This document shows, piece by piece, positions 23,282 through 61,272 of a DNA stretch of 64,000 nucleotides (positions within the stretch are counted from its first letter, which is position 1; each line of letters begins with the position of its first letter). Source of the DNA: Streptomyces sp. NBC_00286. GTDB lineage: Bacteria; Actinomycetota; Actinomycetes; Streptomycetales; Streptomycetaceae. The notes under the pieces were generated by a model that saw nothing but the letters and a program-made list of their open reading frames with translations, ran no database searches and had not been told where the DNA came from. The stretch spans positions 4,402,001 through 4,466,000 of the forward strand of contig NZ_CP108054.1 of the NCBI RefSeq assembly GCF_036173125.1, written 5' to 3'. The translations under genes and the position numbers were made by a program.

Positions 23282-23637
23282 GTGCCTCCGGCGGTTGTGC
23301 GGGTGCGGGTGCGTGGTGGTTGCTCGCGCAGTTCCCCGCGGGGTGCCTCCGGCGGTTGGGCGGGTGCGGGTTGTGTGTGGCTGGTCGCGCCCACGCGGCG
23401 GAGCCGCAAATTGACACAGCCCCGCGGGGTGCCTCCGGCGGTTGGGCGGGTGCGGGTTGAGTGTGGCTGGTCGCGCCCACGCGGCGGAGCCGCAAATTGA
23501 CACAGCCCCGCGGGGTGCCTCCGGCGGTTGGGCGGGTGCGGGTTGAGTGTGGCTGCTCGCGCAGTTCCCCGCGGGGTGCCTCCGGCGGTTGGGCGGGTGC
23601 GGGTTGAGTGTGGCTGGTCGCGCAGTTCCCCGCGCCC
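23282..23637. repeat. Five-copy tandem array of repeat modules
   Basis: The motif GTGCCTCCGGCGGTTG starts at 23282, 23343, 23429, 23514 and 23576. Units alternate between about 61 bp (carrying CTCGCGCAGTTCCCCGCGGG) and about 85 bp (carrying CGGCGGAGCCGCAAATTGAC and ACAGCCCCGCGGG). They look like successive duplications of the dispersed repeat, and the last unit supplies the left end of the MITE-like element. Confidence 0.85.
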
Positions 23638-23901
23638 CTGGGGTGCGTGGTGGGTGCGGGGCCGCGGTCCGGTGCGTCAGCCCGTCGCCAACAGGGCATA
23701 CGACCCCGTGCTGACACAGGGCGCAGCAGTGCCCAGACCGAAGCTAAGCGACGGACATACGACGCACCGGCCCACGTCCCCTCCCACCGGCGGGAAGCTG
23801 CCGGTTTCGTGCGGGGCGCGGGCTTGTCGGCTCGCTTGCTCTTCGAGGGTGCGGCCAGTCGCAGGCTGTTTAGGGGCGCGGGGAACTGCGCGACCAGCCA
23901 C
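23610..23901. repeat. MITE-like structured element, copy A
   Basis: 292 bp bounded by perfect 30-bp inverted repeats: 23610-23639 (starting GTGGCTGGTCGCGCAGTTCC) and 23872-23901 (starting AGGGGCGCGGGGAACTGCGC). The interior has four nested stems: 23669-23678 with 23761-23770 (CCGGTGCGTC/GACGCACCGG), 23682-23688 with 23748-23754, 23694-23698 with 23730-23734, and 23704-23710 with 23715-23721 (one mismatch). A second copy lies at 34626-34915. No transposase is present and no target duplication is evident. It may be a non-autonomous mobile element, a structured RNA or both. Confidence 0.8.
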
Positions 23902-34479: not shown

Positions 34480-34625
34480 CTGCGGGTGCATCGCGCAATT
34501 CCCCAGCCCCGCCCCTTCCCGAAACTGGGGCTCCGCTCGAGCGGGGGGACCCCCATCGCGGCGGATCTGCAAATTGACACCGCCCCGCGGGGTGCCTCCG
34601 GCGGTTGGGCGGGTGCGGGTTGTGT
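34480..34625. repeat. Dispersed repeat modules left of element B
   Basis: TCCCCAGCCCCGCCCCTTCC, GAAACTGGGGCTCCGCTCGA, a CGGCGGATCTGCAAATTGAC variant and GGGGTGCCTCCGGCGGTTGG, in the same order as in the 23-kb field. Confidence 0.8.
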
Positions 34626-34915
34626 GTGGCTGGTCGCGCAGTTCCCCGCGCCCCTTGGGTGGTCGGTGGTGCGGGGCCGCGGTCCGGTGCGTCAGCCCGT
34701 CGCCAACAGGGCATACGGCCCCGTGCTTCCACAGGGCGCAGCAGTGCCCAGACCGAAGCTAAGCGACGGGCATAGGACGCACCGGCCCACGTCCCCTCCC
34801 ACCGGAGGGAGGGTGCCGGTTTCGTCGGGGTGCGGGCGTGTCGGTTCGCTTGCTCGTCGGGGGTGCGGGCAGTCGCAGGCTGTTTAGGGGCGCGGGGAAC
34901 TGCGCGAGCAGCCAC
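34626..34915. repeat. MITE-like structured element, copy B
   Basis: 290 bp with 30-bp terminal inverted repeats (34626-34655 and 34886-34915, one mismatch at 34907). The core 34684-34785 has the same 102-bp length as copy A. The outer stem CCGGTGCGTC/GACGCACCGG is at 34684-34693 and 34776-34785. It differs from copy A at five core positions, all outside the predicted stems; one of the changes adds a base pair to the second stem. Confidence 0.8.
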
Positions 34916-35110
34916 GACGGGCCTGTAGTCGCGACACAACATGTCCCCCCTCCCCCTTCCCGAAACTGGGGCGAGTCGAGAGTGGGGGAGCGACCAGCCA
35001 CAACGGCGCCGCAGCCGCGACACTAGGTGTCCCCCACCACCCCCTGGCGGGGGGCTGGGGGCGCAGCCCACAGTTTCGGGAAGGGGCGGGCCTGGGGAAA
35101 GGAACCACCA
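34916..35110. repeat. Dispersed repeat modules right of element B
   Basis: Two inverted halves: CCTTCCCGAAACTGGGGCGA near 34960 and CCCACAGTTTCGGGAAGGGG near 35067, with CGAGAGTGGGGGAGCGACCA between them. No gene is supported in 34319-35130. Confidence 0.75.
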
Positions 35111-39799: not shown

Positions 39800-39870
39800 A
39801 CGCCCATTGTGCGCCTACGGCCCAAGCGGCAGCGCGCCGTGAGGACGGCGCGGGCGTGAGGACGGCGCGG

Positions 39871-40070
39871 CCGTCAGGCACGCGGCCGTCAGGCACGCGG
39901 CCGTCAGGCACGCGGCCGTCAGGCACGCGGCCGTCAGGCACGCGGCCGTCAGAACTGCGCCCCCGTAAGGGGGCGCGGGGCTGTGTCGATATGCGGCTCC
40001 GCCGCGATGGGGGTCCCCCCGCTCGAGCGCAGCCGAGAGTGGGGGAGGGACCAGCCACGACGGACCCGCA
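39871..40070. repeat. 15-bp tandem repeat plus dispersed intergenic repeat
   Basis: Five perfect copies of CCGTCAGGCACGCGG run from 39871 to 39945 and a sixth partial copy follows. The standard dispersed repeat then starts (GGGGGCGCGGGGCTGTGTCG, GGCTCCGCCGCGATGGGGG, CGAGCGCAGCCGAGAGTGGG). The tandem lies immediately beyond the start of the Cys-containing gene and upstream of rpiR. Confidence 0.9.
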
Positions 40071-54187: not shown

Positions 54188-55033
54188 TTAGTTCAGCCTC
54201 GTTGTCAGCGCCCTCAGTAGGCGTACGACGCCTGCCGGGCCCTCCACCACCAGGTCCGCGCGCTTCTCCAGCTCCGTCACCTCGTTGCTGCCGCTGCAGA
54301 TCAGTAGGCCGGGGACGCCGTTCGCGCGGAGTTCCTCTACTGCCGCGAACGCCGGGAGGTCGCCCAAGTCGTCGCCGGCGTAGGCCACCGCACCGGCGTC
54401 GATCTCGCGTACGTACTCGCGGAGTGCTACGCCCTTGTCCATGCCCGGGGGGCGGAGTTCCAGGACCATGCGCCCCGGCTCCACCACCAGGCCGTGGCGG
54501 GTGGCGAGGTCCGTCAGGGGGTCGCGTAGGGCCTCGAAGGCGGCCTGTGGGTCCTCGGCGCGGCGGGTGTGGACCGCGACGGCTCGGCCCTTTTCCTCGA
54601 TCCAGGTGCCCTGCCGGGCGCCGGACCGGTCGAGGATGCCGGGCAGTTCGGCCCGGACGGCGGCGACGCCGGGGTGGGGCGGGGGTGCCGTGACGGTTCC
54701 GGTGAGCGCGTCCCAGCGTTCGGCGCCGTAGTGGCCTAGGACGACGAGGTGTTCCAGGCCGGGTACGTCCGCGAAGCCGCCGTGGCGTACCGCGACCTCG
54801 GCCGGGCGGCCGGTGACGACGGCGACGGAGGCGACCTTCGGGGCGAGGGCGGCGAGCGCCGGTACCGCTTCGGGGTGGGCGCGTGCCTGCTCGGGGTCGG
54901 GGACGATCGGCGCGAGGGTGCCGTCGAAGTCGAAGGCGAGTACGGCCCGGCCGGGCCGCGCGAGGATGGCGTCGAGTCCGTCACGTCCCGCCGGGGTCGC
55001 GGGAGTCGGCAATGAGTCCGGTTGGCTGCCCAT
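54188..55033 (-). CDS. otsB: Trehalose-6-phosphate phosphatase
   Basis: A 281-residue HAD-family phosphatase of the OtsB type. Motif I is VLAFDFDGTLAPI (nucleophile near residue 34), motif II is VAVVTGRPAEVA, the cap includes GHYGAERWDALTG and WIEEKGRAVAVHTRRA, and motif IV is AYAGDDLGDLPAF. It dephosphorylates trehalose-6-phosphate from OtsA. A short DUF3263 gene lies 25 bp upstream and is co-directional. Confidence 0.94.
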   Translation of the reverse strand: MGSQPDSLPTPATPAGRDGLDAILARPGRAVLAFDFDGTLAPIVPDPEQARAHPEAVPALAALAPKVASVAVVTGRPAEVAVRHGGFADVPGLEHLVVLGHYGAERWDALTGTVTAPPPHPGVAAVRAELPGILDRSGARQGTWIEEKGRAVAVHTRRAEDPQAAFEALRDPLTDLATRHGLVVEPGRMVLELRPPGMDKGVALREYVREIDAGAVAYAGDDLGDLPAFAAVEELRANGVPGLLICSGSNEVTELEKRADLVVEGPAGVVRLLRALTTRLN

Positions 55034-55058
55034 ACGGCGACCCTATCCGCCCGGTCCG

Positions 55059-55289
55059 TCAGCGCTCGGCCCGGCGGGCGTCCCGTATTCGACGCAGCCG
55101 GTTCACGGTCACCGGGTCATGGGCCAGGGCCCGCGGCGCGTCGAGCAGGGCGTTCAGCAACTGGTAATACCGAACCGGCACCATCCCCAACTCCTCCCGT
55201 ATGGCCCGCTCCTTGGCCCCGGGCGACTCCCAGCCACGCCGCTCCAGGGCCAGTACGTCGCGCTCCAGCGGAGTCAGTTCCTCTCCCAT
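55059..55289 (-). CDS. DUF3263 protein
   Basis: A 76-residue all-helical actinobacterial DUF3263 protein (MGEELTPLERDVLALERRGW, KERAIREELGMVPVRYYQLL, PVTVNRLRRIRDARR). The helix-turn-helix-like centre and basic end suggest DNA binding. It precedes otsB in the same direction. Confidence 0.9.
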   Translation of the reverse strand: MGEELTPLERDVLALERRGWESPGAKERAIREELGMVPVRYYQLLNALLDAPRALAHDPVTVNRLRRIRDARRAER

Positions 55290-55324
55290 GCCCGCACGGT
55301 ACCCGTGCCCCGGTGGAGGTCGCA

Positions 55325-55460
55325 GGCCTCCTCGGGGCGCGGGGCTCCTCGGGGCGCGGGGCTCCTCGGGGCGCGGGGCTGTATCGATTTGCGGCTCCGC
55401 CGCGATGGGGGTCCCCCCGCTCGAGCGGAGTCGAGAGTGGGGGAGCGACCAGCCACAACA
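55325..55460. repeat. Dispersed repeat with triple GGGGCGCGGGGCTCCTC
   Basis: Three tandem copies of GGGGCGCGGGGCTCCTC-like units, then TGTATCGATTTGCGGCTCCG, CCGCGATGGGGGTCCCCCCG and CGAGCGGAGTCGAGAGTGGG. The rest of the 55290-55535 gap is featureless. Confidence 0.8.
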
Positions 55461-55535
55461 AACCCGCAGCCGCCATACGACTCGCGCCCCAGCTAATAGG
55501 CACCCTGCGCGACCAGCGGAGCTACCCCGTAGGAA

Positions 55536-56819
55536 CTACTCCGAGGTCTCTGCGGTGAAAGCCGACCGCTGCAGCGACCCCAGAACCGCGGCAGGCCGCG
55601 CATTGGGCCCCACCGCCTTCCCGATCTGCTGCTTGATGTCCGCGCTGACCTGCGCCCAGGACGTCTTGGCGACGGGATACAGCTCGGCGTTCTCGAGCTC
55701 TGACAGGAACGGGTCGAGATCCTTGTCGTTCTTGTCCTCGGCCATCGCATCGGAGGCGGACATGGTCACGGGCAGCAGATTGTACTCGTGGGAGAACTCG
55801 AGCACGTTCTTCTCGCTGTAGACGAAGTCGAGGAACTCGCCGATCTCCTCGCCGTTGCCGTTCTCCTTGAACGCCATCATCCAGTCGGCGACGCCCATCG
55901 TGGCCCTGGCCCTGCCGTCGACGCCGGGCATCGGCACCATGCCGTACTCCACGCCCTTCTTGTCGGCGGCCTGCATCAGCGAGGGGTGACCGTTCAGCAT
56001 GCCGACCTCGCCGCGGGTGAACGCCTCGAAGGCGTCGGCGCGGTTGAGTTTGCCGGGCGGCGTCGGGCCGGTGAGGCCCTTGCCCACCAAGTCGTTCTTG
56101 AGCCAGTTGAAGGTCGCGATGTTCTGGTCGGAGTCGATGCCGTACGAGCCGACCGTGCCGGTGTAGCCGTCGCCGCCGCTGAGCAGCCACATCATGGTCT
56201 CGGCCTGGGCCTCCTCGGGGCCGAGGGGGAGCGCGTACGGGGTCTCGACGCCGCGGGACTTCAGGGTCTGGGCGGCGTCGGCCAGTTCGTCCCAGCTGCG
56301 CGGCGGGGTGAGGCCGGCCTCGTCGAAGAGCTCCTTGTTGTAGAACAGCAGCCGCGTGGAGGCGGCGAACGGCATGCCGTACGGCACCAGGCCCACCTCG
56401 CCCGCCTCGGCGAGTCTCGGGACGAAGTCGGCCTGGACGGGTATGGAGAGCAGCTCGTCGACCTCGTACAGCTGGCCCTTCGCGGCGTAGTCGGCGTACG
56501 CGCCGATCTGCGCCATGTCGGGTGCCTCCCCGTCGGCGACCATCTGTTTGACCTTGGCGTCGACCTCGTTCCACGAGTAAACGCTGACGTCGACCTCGAT
56601 GCCGGGGTTCTTCTTCTCGTACTCCTTGACCAGCTTGTCCCAGTACTTCTGGGAGCTGTTCGCCTCGGAGTTGCCGTAGTCGGCGGCCACCAGCCTGAGC
56701 GTGGCGTTCTGGGGGGTGGAGGAGTCGGCGGAGCAGCCGCCGAGTGCCGCCGTCACGCCCATTGCGGACACCATCGAGATGAAACCTGTCACTCGTCGCC
56801 GCACCGTTGATTTCCCCAT
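55536..56819 (-). CDS. Extracellular sugar-binding lipoprotein
   Basis: A 427-residue type 1 solute-binding protein. A signal peptide ends in a lipobox (ALGGC, Cys near residue 29). The mature fold includes LRLVAADYGNSEANSSQKYW, MADGEA-type loop PDMAQIGAYADYAAKGQLYE, and YGMPFAASTRLLFYNKELFD. Such proteins feed ABC importers, but no permease or ATPase gene is nearby, so it must share a transporter encoded elsewhere. It diverges from nagK across a gap with a DasR-type site, suggesting an amino-sugar or related ligand; this is inference. Confidence 0.9.
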   Translation of the reverse strand: MGKSTVRRRVTGFISMVSAMGVTAALGGCSADSSTPQNATLRLVAADYGNSEANSSQKYWDKLVKEYEKKNPGIEVDVSVYSWNEVDAKVKQMVADGEAPDMAQIGAYADYAAKGQLYEVDELLSIPVQADFVPRLAEAGEVGLVPYGMPFAASTRLLFYNKELFDEAGLTPPRSWDELADAAQTLKSRGVETPYALPLGPEEAQAETMMWLLSGGDGYTGTVGSYGIDSDQNIATFNWLKNDLVGKGLTGPTPPGKLNRADAFEAFTRGEVGMLNGHPSLMQAADKKGVEYGMVPMPGVDGRARATMGVADWMMAFKENGNGEEIGEFLDFVYSEKNVLEFSHEYNLLPVTMSASDAMAEDKNDKDLDPFLSELENAELYPVAKTSWAQVSADIKQQIGKAVGPNARPAAVLGSLQRSAFTAETSE

Positions 56820-56881
56820 CTGTCGTACTCGTCACGGTAGTTGAAGTCCGGACAACCGGAATGCAAGGTCTACAGTACGCG

Positions 56882-56897
56882 AGTGGACTAGACCTCT
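56882..56897. promoter_or_regulatory. DasR operator (dre) upstream of nagK
   Basis: AGTGGACTAGACCTCT matches the dre consensus AGTGGTCTAGACCACT at 14 of 16 positions. It ends 28 bp before nagK GTG 56926 and 62 bp from the start of the divergent sugar-binding lipoprotein. DasR represses amino-sugar genes and is released by glucosamine-6-phosphate in S. coelicolor. Confidence 0.75.
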
Positions 56898-56925
56898 CAT
56901 GGGGTGAGGGGCGAGACTGTATCCC

Positions 56926-59214
56926 GTGAAACACGTCATCGCCCTCGATGTGGGCGGCACCGGGATGAAAGCCGCCCTCCTGGGGGCGGACGGCGCCATG
57001 CCCTCCGGGAGCCGAACCGGGACACGCAGCGATCAACGGCTACCGCTGCGGGACCCCGGCCTCTCCGTGCTGCACCGGGCCCGCCGCGCCACGAACCGGG
57101 ACCGCGGTCCGGACGCCGTCGTGGAGGCGATCCTCGCCTTCGCCGCCGAGCTGCGCGACCACGGCGAGCGCCACTTCGGCGAGCCCGCGTCCGCCGCCGG
57201 CATCGCCGTCCCCGGCATCGTGGACGCCGAGCGCGGCCTCGCGGTGTACGCGGCCAACCTCGGCTGGCGGAACGTACCCCTGCGGGATCTGCTCGGCGAG
57301 CGCCTGTACGGCGTCCCGGTCGCCCTCGGCCACGATGTGCGCACCGGCGGCCTCGCCGAGGGACGGCTCGGGGCGGGGCAGGGAGCCGACCGCTTCCTGT
57401 TCGTGCCGCTCGGCACCGGGATCGCGGGCGCGATCGGCATCGACGGCCGGGTGGAGGCGGGCGCGCACGGCTTCGCGGGTGAGATCGGCCACGTCGTCGT
57501 ACGACCCGGGGGCACCCCATGTCCATGCGGGCAGCGCGGTTGTCTGGAGCGGTACGCGTCCGCGTCGGCGGTGAGCGCGGCCTGGGCCGAGGCGTCCGGT
57601 GATCCGAAGGCGGACGCGGCGGACTGCGCGCAGGCCGTGCGGACCGGGGACCCCCGGGCGCTCGCGGTCTGGCAGGAGGCGGTGGACGCCCTCGCGGACG
57701 GCCTCGTCGCGGCCCTCACCCTGCTGGACCCCCGCACGCTGATCATCGGTGGCGGCCTGGCCGAGGCCGGGGAAACCTTGTTCACACCGCTACGGGCGGC
57801 GGTCGAGCGCCGGGTGACCTTCCAGAAGCTGCCCGCCATCGTCCCGGCGGCGCTCGGGGATACGGCCGGATGCCTGGGCGCGGGGCTACTGGCCTGGGAT
57901 TTGCTCGACACCACACCTACGAAGCCGGAGGAACCCAGGGTGACGGCAACCCACCTAGGGGCGCGGGACGAGACATCATGCGGCTCCGCCGCGATGGGGG
58001 TCCCCCCGCTCGAGCGAAAGCCGAGAGTGGGGGAGCGACCAGCCACGCACGGCCCGCAGCCCGCAACCGGCAAAGCGCCCATCGTCCTGTCCGGCGCCCA
58101 AGTGGTCCTCCCCACCGGAATCGTGGACGGCGGCCGCGTAATCGTCGAGGGCACCCGGATCGCCGGGAGCGCACCCGATGATGCGCGCATGATCGACCTG
58201 CGAGGCCACTGGCTGGTGCCCGGCTTCGTCGATGTCCACAACCACGGCGGCGGAGGCGCCTCCTTCACCTCCGGCACGGTCGAGGACATCCTCAAGGGCG
58301 TCCACACGCACCGCCTCCACGGCACCACGACGACCGTCGCGTCGACCGTCACCGGCGATATGGACGTGCTCGCCCAACGCGCCGGGCTGCTCTCCGAGCT
58401 GGCCGAGCAGGGCGACATCGTGGGCATCCACTTCGAGGGACCGTTCATCTCGCCGTGCCGCAAGGGCGCGCACTCCGAGGAACTGCTGCGCCACCCGGAC
58501 CCGGCCGAGGTGCGCAAGCTGATCGACGCGGCGCGCGGCCAGGCCACGATGGTGACGCTCGCCACGGAACTGCCGGGCGGCATCGACTCCGTACGCCTCC
58601 TCGCGGAGCACGGGGTGATCGCGGCGATCGGGCACACGGACGCTACGTACGAGCAGACGGTGGAGGCCATCGAGGCGGGCGCCACCGTGGCCACGCACCT
58701 CTACAACGCGATGCCCGTCCTCGGTCACCGCGCTCCCGGCCCGATCGCCGCGCTCCTGGAGGACGAGCGGATCACGGTCGAGTTGATCAACGACGGTACG
58801 CATCTGCATCCGGCGTCGCTCCAGCTGGCGTTCCGTCACGCGGGCGCAAGGCGGGTGGCGTTCATCACGGACGCGATGGACGCGGCGGGCTTCGGCGACG
58901 GCCGTTACATGCTCGGCCCGCTGGAGGTCGAGGTCAGCGAGGGCGTGGCGCGGCTGGTGGAGGGCGGCTCCATCGCGGGCTCGACCTTGACCCTGGACCG
59001 GGCCTTCAAGCGGGCCGTCACCGTGGACGGACTGGCCGTCGAGGACGTGGTCGCCGCCATCTCCGCCACCCCGGCCCGGCTGCTGGGCCTGTACGACCGG
59101 GTGGGTTCGCTGGAACCGGGCAAGGACGCGGACCTGGTGATCCTGGACGCCGACTTCGCTTTGAAGGGCGTGATGCGCCGCGGAGAATGGGTGGTTGAGC
59201 CCCAACTGGGCTGA
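56926..59214 (+). CDS. nagKA: In-frame NagK-NagA fusion (GlcNAc kinase + GlcNAc-6-phosphate deacetylase)
   Basis: One 762-residue frame covers two normally separate genes. Residues 1-338 are a ROK kinase: VIALDVGGTGMKAALLGADG, VPLGTGIAGAIGIDGRVEAG and the zinc site GEIGHVVVRPGGTPCPCGQRGC. Residues about 385-762 are NagA: MIDLRGHWLVPGFVDVHNHG, IHFEGPFISPCRKGAH, GHTDATYEQTVEAI and FITDAMDAAGFGDG. In between, residues about 339-384 are a dispersed intergenic repeat read as protein. A GGAGGA site (57927-57932) and GTG 57940, in the same frame, mark the original nagA start, so NagA may also be made alone. The kinase makes GlcNAc-6-phosphate and the deacetylase makes glucosamine-6-phosphate. Confidence 0.9.
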   Translation: MKHVIALDVGGTGMKAALLGADGAMPSGSRTGTRSDQRLPLRDPGLSVLHRARRATNRDRGPDAVVEAILAFAAELRDHGERHFGEPASAAGIAVPGIVDAERGLAVYAANLGWRNVPLRDLLGERLYGVPVALGHDVRTGGLAEGRLGAGQGADRFLFVPLGTGIAGAIGIDGRVEAGAHGFAGEIGHVVVRPGGTPCPCGQRGCLERYASASAVSAAWAEASGDPKADAADCAQAVRTGDPRALAVWQEAVDALADGLVAALTLLDPRTLIIGGGLAEAGETLFTPLRAAVERRVTFQKLPAIVPAALGDTAGCLGAGLLAWDLLDTTPTKPEEPRVTATHLGARDETSCGSAAMGVPPLERKPRVGERPATHGPQPATGKAPIVLSGAQVVLPTGIVDGGRVIVEGTRIAGSAPDDARMIDLRGHWLVPGFVDVHNHGGGGASFTSGTVEDILKGVHTHRLHGTTTTVASTVTGDMDVLAQRAGLLSELAEQGDIVGIHFEGPFISPCRKGAHSEELLRHPDPAEVRKLIDAARGQATMVTLATELPGGIDSVRLLAEHGVIAAIGHTDATYEQTVEAIEAGATVATHLYNAMPVLGHRAPGPIAALLEDERITVELINDGTHLHPASLQLAFRHAGARRVAFITDAMDAAGFGDGRYMLGPLEVEVSEGVARLVEGGSIAGSTLTLDRAFKRAVTVDGLAVEDVVAAISATPARLLGLYDRVGSLEPGKDADLVILDADFALKGVMRRGEWVVEPQLG
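57955..58060. repeat. Dispersed intergenic repeat inside the nagK-nagA frame
   Basis: AGGGGCGCGGGACGAGACAT, CATGCGGCTCCGCCGCGATG, GGGGTCCCCCCGCTCGAGCG, then AAAGCCGAGAGTGGGGGAGC and GACCAGCCACGCACGGCCCG. The AAAGCC run has one more A than the matching AAGCC of the other copies in the window. The repeat begins five codons after the nagA GTG. Confidence 0.9.
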
Positions 59215-59339
59215 TTCTGCCGTTTGTTGAGCCGGGCGGCTGGCCTGCGGAACTGGGCCGACCGCCGTCCGGCTGGCATGATCGGTCATCCGGACAAGGC
59301 CGGACAAGGTAAGCGCGCACTCGGGGGAGGTCGGCCCGG

Positions 59340-60269
59340 ATGATCCTCACGGTCACGCTGAACACCGCTCTCGACATCACGTACTACGTACCGTCCCTGC
59401 GCCCGCACGCCTCGCACCGCGTGACGGAGGTCACCGAACGCCCCGGCGGCAAGGGCCTGAACGTGGCCCGGGTGCTGGCGGCGCTCGGCCACGAGGTGAC
59501 CGTGACGGGTTTCGTGGGCGGGGCGACCGGGCGCGCCCTCCAGGACCAACTCGCGTCCACCGAGGGCGTCGTGGACGCGCTGGTCCCGGTGACGGGTCCG
59601 ACCCGCCGCACCATCGCGGTGGTCGACACGACGACCGGTGACACGACTCAGCTCAACGAGCCGGGCCCGCTCGTCTCCCCCGCCGAGTGGCGGGCGTTCC
59701 AGGACGCGTACGAGGAACTGCTGCCCGCGGCCTCCGCGGTGGCCCTGTGCGGCAGCCTCCCACCCGGCGTCCCGGTAGGCGCGTACGCCCAACTCGTCCG
59801 CACGGCCCGCTCCGCGTCGGTCCCGGTCCTCCTCGACACCAGCGGCGAACCCCTCCGCCGAGGCGTAGCCGCCCGCCCCGACCTCGTCAAACCGAACACC
59901 GACGAGCTGGCCGAACTCACCGGCTCCCACGAGCCGTTGCAGGCCACGCGGGACGCCCGCCGCCGCGGCGCCCACGCGGTGGTCGCCTCCCTGGGCCCGG
60001 AGGGCCTGCTGGCCCTGAACGCGGAGGGCCACTGGCGAGCGACACCGCCGGCCCCGGTCGAGGGCAACCCGACGGGGGCAGGCGACTCGGTCGTCGCGGG
60101 CCTGCTGTCGGGCCTGGTGGAGGGTCTGCCTTGGCCGGAGAGGCTGGCCCGCGCGGTCGCGTTGTCGACGGCGACGGTACTGGCGCCGGCGGCGGGCGAG
60201 TTCGACGGGCGGGCGTACGAGGAGTTGCTGGAGCAGGTAACGGTGACGGGCGAGTCCAGCGCGGCCTGA
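59340..60269 (+). CDS. PfkB-family hexose-phosphate kinase (1-phosphofructokinase type)
   Basis: A 309-residue ribokinase-fold kinase. The N-terminal signature is RPGGKGLNVARVLAALGHEV and the catalytic motif is NPTGAGDSVVAGLLSGLVEG, with Asp as the base near residue 248. The N-terminus MILTVTLNTALDITYYV fits the tagatose-6-phosphate/1-phosphofructokinase group. ATG 59340 follows GGGGGAGG. It lies 125 bp after nagA in the same direction and may serve a related sugar phosphate. Confidence 0.9.
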   Translation: MILTVTLNTALDITYYVPSLRPHASHRVTEVTERPGGKGLNVARVLAALGHEVTVTGFVGGATGRALQDQLASTEGVVDALVPVTGPTRRTIAVVDTTTGDTTQLNEPGPLVSPAEWRAFQDAYEELLPAASAVALCGSLPPGVPVGAYAQLVRTARSASVPVLLDTSGEPLRRGVAARPDLVKPNTDELAELTGSHEPLQATRDARRRGAHAVVASLGPEGLLALNAEGHWRATPPAPVEGNPTGAGDSVVAGLLSGLVEGLPWPERLARAVALSTATVLAPAAGEFDGRAYEELLEQVTVTGESSAA

Positions 60270-60288
60270 GAAGCCCTCGAGCCTGCTG

Positions 60289-61272
60289 CTAGCCCTTGCT
60301 CAGCGACAGCTGGTCGAGCACCGCGTCACACTGGTTGCCCTCGGCGCAGGCGATCTCGATGAGGTTGGCGCCCTTGGTCAGGTTGACCGGGGCCCAGGTC
60401 GTCTGCCAGCCCTTCTCCCAGTCGCCCTTCGGGGCCTGCTTCTCACCGATGAAGTTCTTCATGTTCAGCGGCGAGGTGTTCGGCTTGCCGTTGACCACGA
60501 CGGTCGCGTTGGCGTCGACACCGGGGATGCCGTAGCGGACGTCCAGCCGGTAGGTGCCGGCCTTCTCGATGCCCTTGACGGCCCACACGACCTTGGCACC
60601 GACCTTGTTGAAGCCCGTCACATAGACACCGCCGCCCGCCTCGGCGCCCTTGAACTGGGTGTCGACGGTCGTGCCGCCCTCCAGACGCAGGGTTTTCGCG
60701 TCGATCTTCGGCAGCTCGGCCTCGTCCTTCGCCGGCTTCGAAGCCGGCGCGCTCGGCTCGGTGTTCTGCCCCGCCGTCGGCGTCGAACCCCCCGCCTCGT
60801 TCCCCCCGGGATCTTCGTCGCCGCCCATCATCGCGACCCCGATGCCGATCACGACGGCCGCGACCACGGCGATCGCGCCGATCAGGAGGCCCTTGGTGTT
60901 GGGACCACGGCCACGGCCACCACCGCCGCCGCCCATACCGCTGCTCGGCAGGGGCGTGCGCGTCGTGGGCGTGCCGCCGCCGAACGTCTCCGGGGCCTGG
61001 TAGTGCGACTGCCCGTACGTGTCCTGACCCTGCGGCGCCGGAGCCTGCGCGTACTGCGCGGTCGGCGCCGTCTGGGAAGCCTGCTGCGACTGCTGGGCCT
61101 GCTGGCCGTACTGGCGCTCGCCGACCGCCCGCACCCGGTTGACCGAACCGGGGTAGCCGTAGCCCACGCCTCCGTCTGGCGGCGTGGCTCCGGCGGCCTG
61201 ACCGTCGGCGTAGAGATAGCCGAACGGGTCGTCGTCCTCGGGCGTGCTCGCGCCGTTGTTGCCGGGCGTCAT
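60289..61272 (-). CDS. Membrane-anchored carbohydrate-binding-module protein
   Basis: A 327-residue protein. Residues 1-125 are a cytoplasmic, Gln/Ala/Pro-rich low-complexity region (QYGQQAQQSQQASQTAPTAQ). One membrane helix follows at about 126-147 (GLLIGAIAVVAAVVIGIGVA). A Pro/Ser spacer leads to a C-terminal CBM6/CBM35-like beta-sandwich at about 195-327 (LRLEGGTTVDTQFKGAEAGG, AGTYRLDVRYGIPGVDANAT, NLIEIACAEGNQCDAV). Two cysteines near the end may pair. It probably binds glycans at the cell surface. Confidence 0.85.
   Translation of the reverse strand: MTPGNNGASTPEDDDPFGYLYADGQAAGATPPDGGVGYGYPGSVNRVRAVGERQYGQQAQQSQQASQTAPTAQYAQAPAPQGQDTYGQSHYQAPETFGGGTPTTRTPLPSSGMGGGGGGRGRGPNTKGLLIGAIAVVAAVVIGIGVAMMGGDEDPGGNEAGGSTPTAGQNTEPSAPASKPAKDEAELPKIDAKTLRLEGGTTVDTQFKGAEAGGGVYVTGFNKVGAKVVWAVKGIEKAGTYRLDVRYGIPGVDANATVVVNGKPNTSPLNMKNFIGEKQAPKGDWEKGWQTTWAPVNLTKGANLIEIACAEGNQCDAVLDQLSLSKG

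What the first reader, a model, noticed from the sequence alone, without database searches (positions are those of the whole stretch)
57900..58070. nagK and nagA fused through an intergenic repeat held in frame by one extra A
The repeat sits five codons into nagA, and the kinase has no stop before the nagA GTG at 57940. Read through, the repeat adds about 46 residues and joins two sequential enzymes into a 762-residue protein. Other copies in the window read CGAAGCC or close variants at the equivalent point, while this copy reads CGAAAGCC. Without that A, the nagA frame would be lost, so the base change looks selected. If translated, the fusion would couple GlcNAc phosphorylation to deacetylation.
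Basis: partly seen in the sequence, partly recalled or inferred. Interest (0 to 1): 0.8.

Follow-up and report, generated by a model that had tools for sequence, protein, structure and literature searches.

The report
Fused sugar enzymes with repeat linker
In a Streptomyces and one sister species, two neighbouring genes for using the cell-wall sugar N-acetylglucosamine have lost the stop signal between them and read as one protein, joined by a linker encoded by a repeat that is scattered through the genome and sits, in frame, at the start of the second gene in many relatives.

Summary
One open frame (56926-59214, 762 aa) joins a ROK-family sugar kinase (NagK) to GlcNAc-6-P deacetylase (NagA), with a dispersed repeat between them. 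Of 71 exact pattern matches to the long form in the genome, only this one has the extra A.

The explanation needs correcting. Neither the repeat nor the A caused the fusion. Unfused relatives carry the repeat as an in-frame start of nagA: 111 of 111 unfused loci are in frame and 72 contain repeat words. The A keeps NagA in frame, fused or not. The fusion needed a separate +1 base at the overlapping nagK stop/nagA start, shared with the nearest relative found (G377), so sequencing error is unlikely. dN/dS is about 0.2 in both halves.

The junction looks mosaic: the flanking genes match S. flaveus, which has no repeat there; the junction matches other species, probably through recombination.

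A ribosome binding site and GTG remain before nagA, so free NagA is probably made too, but no free NagK. A fused frame was found in 3 of 359 same-genus genomes. There is no protein evidence.

The parts
56882..56897 (+). DasR-type operator (AGTGGACTAGACCTCT) upstream of nagK
   Evidence: Sequence read and checked; it is the reverse complement of the S. coelicolor nagKA site agaggtctagtccact listed in PMC4398421 (passage). A scan with one symmetric consensus spelling found nothing at 3 mismatches.
56926..57939 (+). NagK part of the fused frame (ROK-family sugar kinase), no stop codon of its own
   Evidence: ORF; Pfam ROK PF00480 E=5e-56; solved-structure relatives
57001..57069 (+). 23-residue in-frame insertion in the kinase N-terminal region, absent from G377 (L112)
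   Evidence: alignment; S. bluensis has a different insertion near the same place
57903..58085 (+). approximate extent of the junction segment that does not match the locus of the nearest unfused relative compared (L048, S. flaveus) and resembles L113/L116/L096/L025
   Evidence: limits judged by eye
57927..57931 (+). Shine-Dalgarno-like GGAGG, 8 nt before the nagA GTG
   Evidence: also present in L112
57938..57940 (+). GGG run holding the +1 base that removes the nagK stop (L113 and L116 ACGTGACGG, G377 ACGGTGACGG, window AGGGTGACGG)
57940..57942 (+). retained nagA start codon GTG, in frame with nagK; would give a 424-aa, 44.2-kDa NagA
57957..58059 (+). dispersed Streptomyces repeat, long form, read in frame as the linker (limits from the best other match)
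58017..58019 (+). AAA containing the extra A that keeps the nagA frame (1 of 71 pattern matches)
58027..58029 (+). in-frame GTG inside the repeat, after the extra A; possible but unsupported late start
58081..59214 (+). NagA catalytic part (GlcNAc-6-phosphate deacetylase) with stop
   Evidence: PDB relatives 6fv3 E=9e-88, 2vhl, 1ymy; Pfam Amidohydro_1; H438, H440, E504, H570, H591, D649 invariant in 22 rows

Best explanation
In this Streptomyces the DasR-type nagKA operon encodes one NagK-NagA polypeptide. Steps: (1) Shown: in the Streptomyces loci read here nagK usually ends in a stop that overlaps the nagA start, and nagA often begins with an in-frame stretch of a dispersed repeat that must in most such loci be translated as a low-complexity tail. 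(2) Inferred from a mosaic: the common ancestor of this species and G377, whose locus resembled the repeat-free S. flaveus locus, took up a junction segment (nagK tail, nagA start, repeat) from another Streptomyces lineage by recombination. (3) Shown: a single added base at the overlapping stop/start put nagK into the nagA frame, and no stop remains. (4) Shown by comparison with L113: in the window species the repeat is 36 nt longer, a multiple of three only because of the extra A. (5) Inferred: every ribosome finishing nagK goes on into nagA, so NagK exists only as the 79-kDa fusion; the retained ribosome binding site and GTG probably also make free 44-kDa NagA. The repeat-coded stretch acts as a flexible tether and the two sequential enzymes (GlcNAc to GlcNAc-6-P to GlcN-6-P) work as joined domains, with no demonstrated channelling.
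For: Fused frame. Same fusion in G377 with 94% protein identity. dN/dS window vs G377: kinase 0.031/0.139, NagA 0.026/0.133, linker 0.158/0.132 over 44 codons. Relatives' junctions: 111 of 111 unfused loci in frame, 72 of 111 with repeat words, 48 of those 72 without any in-frame ATG/GTG/TTG after the overlap start; 60 more loci. Extra A 1 of 71. Mosaic: among 114 loci L048 (S. flaveus, no repeat) ranks 3rd, after the window itself and G377, for both flanks, while L113 ranks 96 and 87; in the junction segment, with 75 loci giving a hit, L116 ranks 3 and L113 6, and L048 gives none (block identities). Domains intact.
Against: No reads, RNA or protein data. An independent fused frame (S. bluensis) and kinase-tail frame changes (4 of 60 loci) suggest that the nagK tail drifts freely, so the fusion may be neutral. 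In the two junction blocks the window is closer to L113 (0.92, 0.84) than to its fused sister G377 (0.88, 0.78), which leaves room for more than one exchange, although the +1 base is shared. Part of the segment is repeat, which many genomes share; S. fulvoviolaceus (L046) ranks 4th there. No formal recombination test was run. The AlphaFold model was too weak to show two joined domains (mean pLDDT 58.5).
Confidence: 0.75

Rival explanations
1. Two separate activities in practice: NagA is made mainly from its own GTG, the read-through form is rare, unstable or cleaved in the linker, and the lost nagK stop is a neutral accident.
For: Ribosome binding site and GTG are retained in both fused species; linker dN/dS about 1.2 over 44 codons; nagK tail frame varies in other species (4 of 60).
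Against: There is no stop after nagK, so any NagK made is translated as part of the fusion unless cut afterwards; both halves look constrained.
Confidence: 0.4
2. Sequencing or assembly artefact: one or both single-base differences are homopolymer errors.
For: Both changed bases lie in short homopolymer runs (GGG at 57938-57940, AAA at 58017-58019); three other loci (L057, L080, L089) had broken kinase or nagA frames that look like assembly errors.
Against: The +1 at the stop is present in another genome, G377 (L112). The extra A leaves a working nagA frame, unlike a random indel. Single-contig genome, 99.98% complete.
Confidence: 0.05
3. The repeat in nagA is kept for its DNA or RNA (structure or binding site in the early nagA message), and being in frame is only a side condition.
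For: In 36 loci with the short form, third codon positions of the repeat core are almost invariant (mean entropy 0.13) against 0.71 in the NagA body; the lowest 7-codon window of the body is 0.21.
Against: The same core is dispersed through the genome (145 exact copies here), so uniformity can come from exchange among copies or between species; RNA folding is not exceptional (z -1.1 and -1.8); no Rfam match at gathering thresholds in 55000-60500.
Confidence: 0.2

Closest known systems
Rickettsia palindromic elements (RPEs; Ogata et al. 2000 and 2002, known here only through passages of the review PMC10969869)
   Same: A dispersed repeat inserted in frame in protein-coding genes, giving an extra peptide; relatives lacking the insert exist here.
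   Different: No sequence relation was tested; no constant peptide, since the repeat is read in different frames in nagA and in an alpha-mannosidase gene; here it sits at a gene junction and has become the linker of a fusion.
nagKA operon of Streptomyces coelicolor (SCO4284-SCO4285, DasR regulon; PMC4398421, passages)
   Same: Same pair of genes and an operator with the same sequence on the other strand; the divergent solute-binding-type neighbour is a label from recall.
   Different: There named as separate genes; here one continuous frame. S. violaceoruber NRRL S-981 (L096) has separate genes and only a short remnant of the repeat.
Other NagK-NagA fusions: P0001/P0002 (739 and 754 aa), S. 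bluensis L031/G353; order NagA-kinase in P0063 and P0071
   Same: One predicted polypeptide with both domains.
   Different: Different linkers: S. bluensis by a shift further up the kinase tail with a GACCGG-type tandem linker; P0001/P0002 with a His/Thr-rich linker, 86% identical to each other. P0065 (589 aa) also lists both domains but its Arg-rich middle looks frame-shifted and is not counted.
REP/MITE-type intergenic repeats of bacteria
   Same: High copy number, both orientations.
   Different: No transposase or terminal repeats were sought; membership not claimed.

Membership tests
NagA (GlcNAc-6-phosphate deacetylase) | amidohydrolase family with metal/catalytic His, Glu and Asp residues | tested here: met
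   PDB NagA hits 6fv3 (E=9e-88), 2vhl, 1ymy; Pfam PF01979; H438, H440, E504, H570, H591, D649 invariant in 22 rows (catalytic roles recalled)
ROK sugar kinase / NagK | ROK domain | tested here: met
   PF00480 E=5e-56; glucokinase 3vgk E=4e-34 and GlcNAc kinases 7p7i and 4db3 among PDB hits
ROK sugar kinase / NagK | specificity for GlcNAc | not testable with these tools
   inferred from gene order and the DasR-type site only
NagK-NagA fusion protein | one continuous reading frame over both domains | tested here: met
   same in G377
NagK-NagA fusion protein | one polypeptide in the cell | not testable with these tools
   no proteomic data
Protein-coding palindromic element (RPE-like behaviour) | dispersed multi-copy repeat | tested here: met
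   145 exact cores, 71 long-form pattern matches
Protein-coding palindromic element (RPE-like behaviour) | in-frame insertion with empty-site relatives | tested here: met
   (L048 has no repeat)
Protein-coding palindromic element (RPE-like behaviour) | stable palindromic structure | tested here: inconclusive
   9-bp stem predicted, but z-scores only -1.1 and -1.8
Protein-coding palindromic element (RPE-like behaviour) | conserved peptide from one fixed frame | tested here: not met
   read in different frames in nagA and in the GH38 gene at L141

The most novel reading that the evidence does not exclude
The nagK-nagA junction of Streptomyces is a recombination hot spot where dispersed palindromic repeats act as portable coding cassettes: lineages repeatedly swap junction segments, repeat included and in frame, and this traffic now and then produces a tethered NagK-NagA enzyme whose linker is made of the repeat.
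Probability: 0.3. Interest if true: 0.65.

Novelty: new variant of a known kind. Interest (0 to 1): 0.5.

Why it matters
It shows, with intermediate states preserved in living species (no repeat, repeat inside an unfused gene, fused gene), how a dispersed repeat becomes protein sequence and then an interdomain linker. GlcNAc use is tied through DasR to development and antibiotic production in Streptomyces (abstract and passages of PMC4398421; development recalled), so obligatory joining of NagK to NagA is a physiologically testable change. It also warns annotation pipelines that some copies of a Streptomyces repeat are coding.

Tried and rejected
Rejected: that the repeat created the fusion (G377 is fused with a different, shorter repeat form; unfused relatives carry the repeat). 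Rejected: sequencing error for the lost stop (shared with G377). Considered and not concluded: RNA-level function.

The S. ipomoeae long-form copy in nagA (L032) is also in frame, through a different extra base, and first looked like an independent frame rescue. In that genome the longer class is 6 of 16 pattern matches, nagA's copy included, so it is weak evidence. L128 has a third in-frame long form.

An early idea that every repeat swap stays in frame by selection on each swap was dropped once the mosaic suggested that whole working junctions can be imported.

AlphaFold on 22 sequences gave a poor model (mean pLDDT 58.5; much of the kinase half and the linker low); not used, and no fold search was made. 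The first alignment, A1 (33 rows), mixed kinases with NagA and was not used. A scan with one spelling of the dre consensus found nothing at 3 mismatches.

Rows dropped: of 140 loci, 24 were dropped before the 116 rows (23 duplicates, among them L111 = L001 and L133 = L031, and L080, whose nagA match starts late). Of the 116, five had no nagK stop before NagA: L001, L112 and L031 are the fusions; L057 and L089 have a kinase frame broken elsewhere and were left out of fusion counts and tree. L080 also reads nagK tail and nagA start in one frame but has breaks in both genes and is not counted. The loci were picked by similarity to the window, so 72 of 111 is not a population frequency; of 60 lower-ranked loci, 7 carry the repeat by eye. 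Fusion counts rest on the score-sorted lists, of which only the upper part is printed; a fused match would stand at the top. Genomes G279-G311 (33) were not searched for the fusion. In one search only the 7994 candidates sharing most words were scored; neither the window's nor G377's own fused protein is in its list.

Full report
OBSERVATION. The frame 56926-59214 is open over 762 codons and holds a ROK kinase and NagA. The nagA GTG at 57940 is in the nagK frame, and a GGAGG lies 8 nt before it. Upstream, at 56882-56897, stands a sequence that is the exact reverse complement of the S. coelicolor nagKA DasR site printed in PMC4398421 (passages read). The divergent neighbour is a solute-binding-type ORF (label from recall), so the locus probably corresponds to SCO4284-4286. 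Both halves have solved relatives, and the NagA catalytic positions are invariant in a 22-row alignment (their roles are recalled). That the genus is Streptomyces is inferred from the named matches.

THE REPEAT. The junction repeat belongs to a large dispersed family: 42 matches to the 125-nt query, itself included, with 40 of 503 candidates scored; 145 exact copies of a 27-nt core in this genome and at least one in 25 of 61 same-genus genomes; 71 exact long-form pattern matches. Of these 71, 70 have the 39-nt form and only this one the 40-nt form. Of 30 long-form copies fetched, 2 lie, by my reading, in a frame with coding-like base composition on both sides: this one, and L141, inside an alpha-mannosidase (GH38) gene, between the middle and C-terminal domains. 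The repeat is read there in another frame.

RELATIVES. Among 116 distinct junctions, 111 had a nagK stop. In all 111 the nagA start overlaps that stop and is in frame with NagA, although the stretch between takes 17 different lengths from 14 to 179 nt. 72 of the 111 contain repeat words, and 48 of those 72 have no ATG, GTG or TTG in frame after the overlap start, so there the repeat must be translated. Without the repeat, NagA begins MATSKVLAGA or similar. In 60 further loci of lower similarity the nagA starts are in frame, 7 carry the repeat (by eye), and in 4 the kinase ends 8 nt earlier at a TAA. Public protein records already contain the repeat-coded tail, for example the 443-residue S. 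ipomoeae NagA (P0003). Of the 61 genomes, 27 had a junction read here: the 10 whose nagA carries the repeat have more copies of the core (median 30.5) than the 17 whose nagA lacks it (median 0; one-sided Mann-Whitney p = 6e-5, not corrected for kinship, joined by hand). One genome without the repeat in nagA has 258 copies.

THE FUSION. The unfused loci with the most similar junction read CACGTGACGG (L113, L116). G377 reads CACGGTGACGG and the window CAGGGTGACGG: one base more, so the stop is lost and nagK runs into nagA. G377, the nearest of 392 genomes by the junction region (88% DNA identity), is 94% identical in protein, lacks the long repeat form, and is fused as well. Between the two, dN/dS is 0.22 for the kinase, 0.20 for NagA and about 1.2 for the 44 aligned linker codons (ratios). 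A single frame over both domains was found in 1 of 199 genomes (the window's own), 2 of 80 (G377 and G353; the one TGA reported for G353 is by position its final stop) and 0 of 80, together 3 of 359. With P0001 as query, 1 of 150 genomes of the family, again the window's own. G353 has the same junction as S. bluensis L031, where the shift lies further up in the kinase tail and the linker is a GACCGG-type tandem repeat. The protein search listed two further fused proteins, P0001 and P0002, 86% identical to each other with the large gaps in the linker, two with the order NagA-kinase (P0063, P0071), and P0065, which looks frame-shifted. On a FastTree tree of 174 loci the fused state needs 2 changes, an insert longer than 45 nt in front of NagA 9 (10 shuffles: 55-63), and the insert form 38 (5 shuffles: 73-83); 9 of the 174 inserts are of other kinds, not all of them this repeat.

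THE MOSAIC. Among the 114 loci compared, the nearest unfused relative by gene bodies is L048, Streptomyces flaveus, which has no repeat in nagA. It ranks third, after the window itself and G377, for both the kinase and the NagA bodies, while L113 ranks 96 and 87. In the junction segment 75 loci gave a hit: L116 ranks 3 and L113 6, L048 gives none. In 100-nt blocks the window is closer to L048 than to L113 in all 20 body blocks; in the two junction blocks L113 reaches 0.92 and 0.84 while L048 has too few aligned bases in the first and 0.64 in the second. The non-repeat flanks of the junction (nagK tail and the stretch after the repeat) share this pattern. The simplest reading is that an ancestor of the window species and G377 replaced its junction by recombination and then, or with it, gained the +1 base. 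Against a single simple event: in the junction blocks the window is slightly closer to L113 than to G377 (0.88, 0.78). No formal test was run, and whether the repeat promotes such exchange is not shown.

THE EXTRA A. Where L113 has 6 nt between GCCGCG and CGACCAGCC, the window has 42 nt, 36 more. A standard 41-nt copy would have broken the frame. This base therefore preserves NagA, fused or not. S. ipomoeae has an in-frame 42-nt version through a different base, but there that version is common (6 of 16 matches).

DNA-LEVEL UNIFORMITY. In 36 loci with the short form, the core codons are nearly frozen at third positions (mean entropy 0.13 against 0.71 in the NagA body, lowest 7-codon body window 0.21). 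This fits exchange among copies or between species, or a nucleic-acid function. Folding and Rfam give no support for a special RNA.

LITERATURE. A search for the core sequence in four spellings found no paper. A search for fusion, bifunctional, GlcNAc kinase and GlcNAc-6-P deacetylase gave three papers, none showing such a fusion in its title or start of abstract (listing only). Two searches for Streptomyces repeats (20 of 65 and 12 of 73 papers listed) showed no title on this family. In-frame palindromic repeats are known from Rickettsia (PMC10969869, passages).

VERDICT. Observation confirmed; cause corrected; the protein product remains to be shown.

Noticed in passing
57001-57069: The kinase has a 23-residue in-frame insertion near its N-terminus that G377 lacks; S. 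bluensis has a different insertion near the same place.
   Followed up: partly
L141 287-3037 (minus strand): Another long-form copy lies in frame inside a GH38 alpha-mannosidase gene, between domains.
   Followed up: partly
L128 and L032, nagA 5' end: Two other species carry in-frame long forms of the repeat in an unfused nagA.
   Followed up: partly
39851-39967: Tandem 15-nt units (CGCGGCCGTCAGGCA type) directly before another copy of the repeat family.
   Followed up: no
23282-23684 and 34531-34956: Two clusters of larger repeats 11 kb apart, up to 94% identical over 163 nt.
   Followed up: no
P0069, P0082, P0086: Other proteins whose listed domains join a ROK kinase to a different enzyme domain; PF01182 in P0086 is, from recall, the glucosamine-6-phosphate isomerase (NagB) family, the next step of the same pathway.
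   Followed up: no
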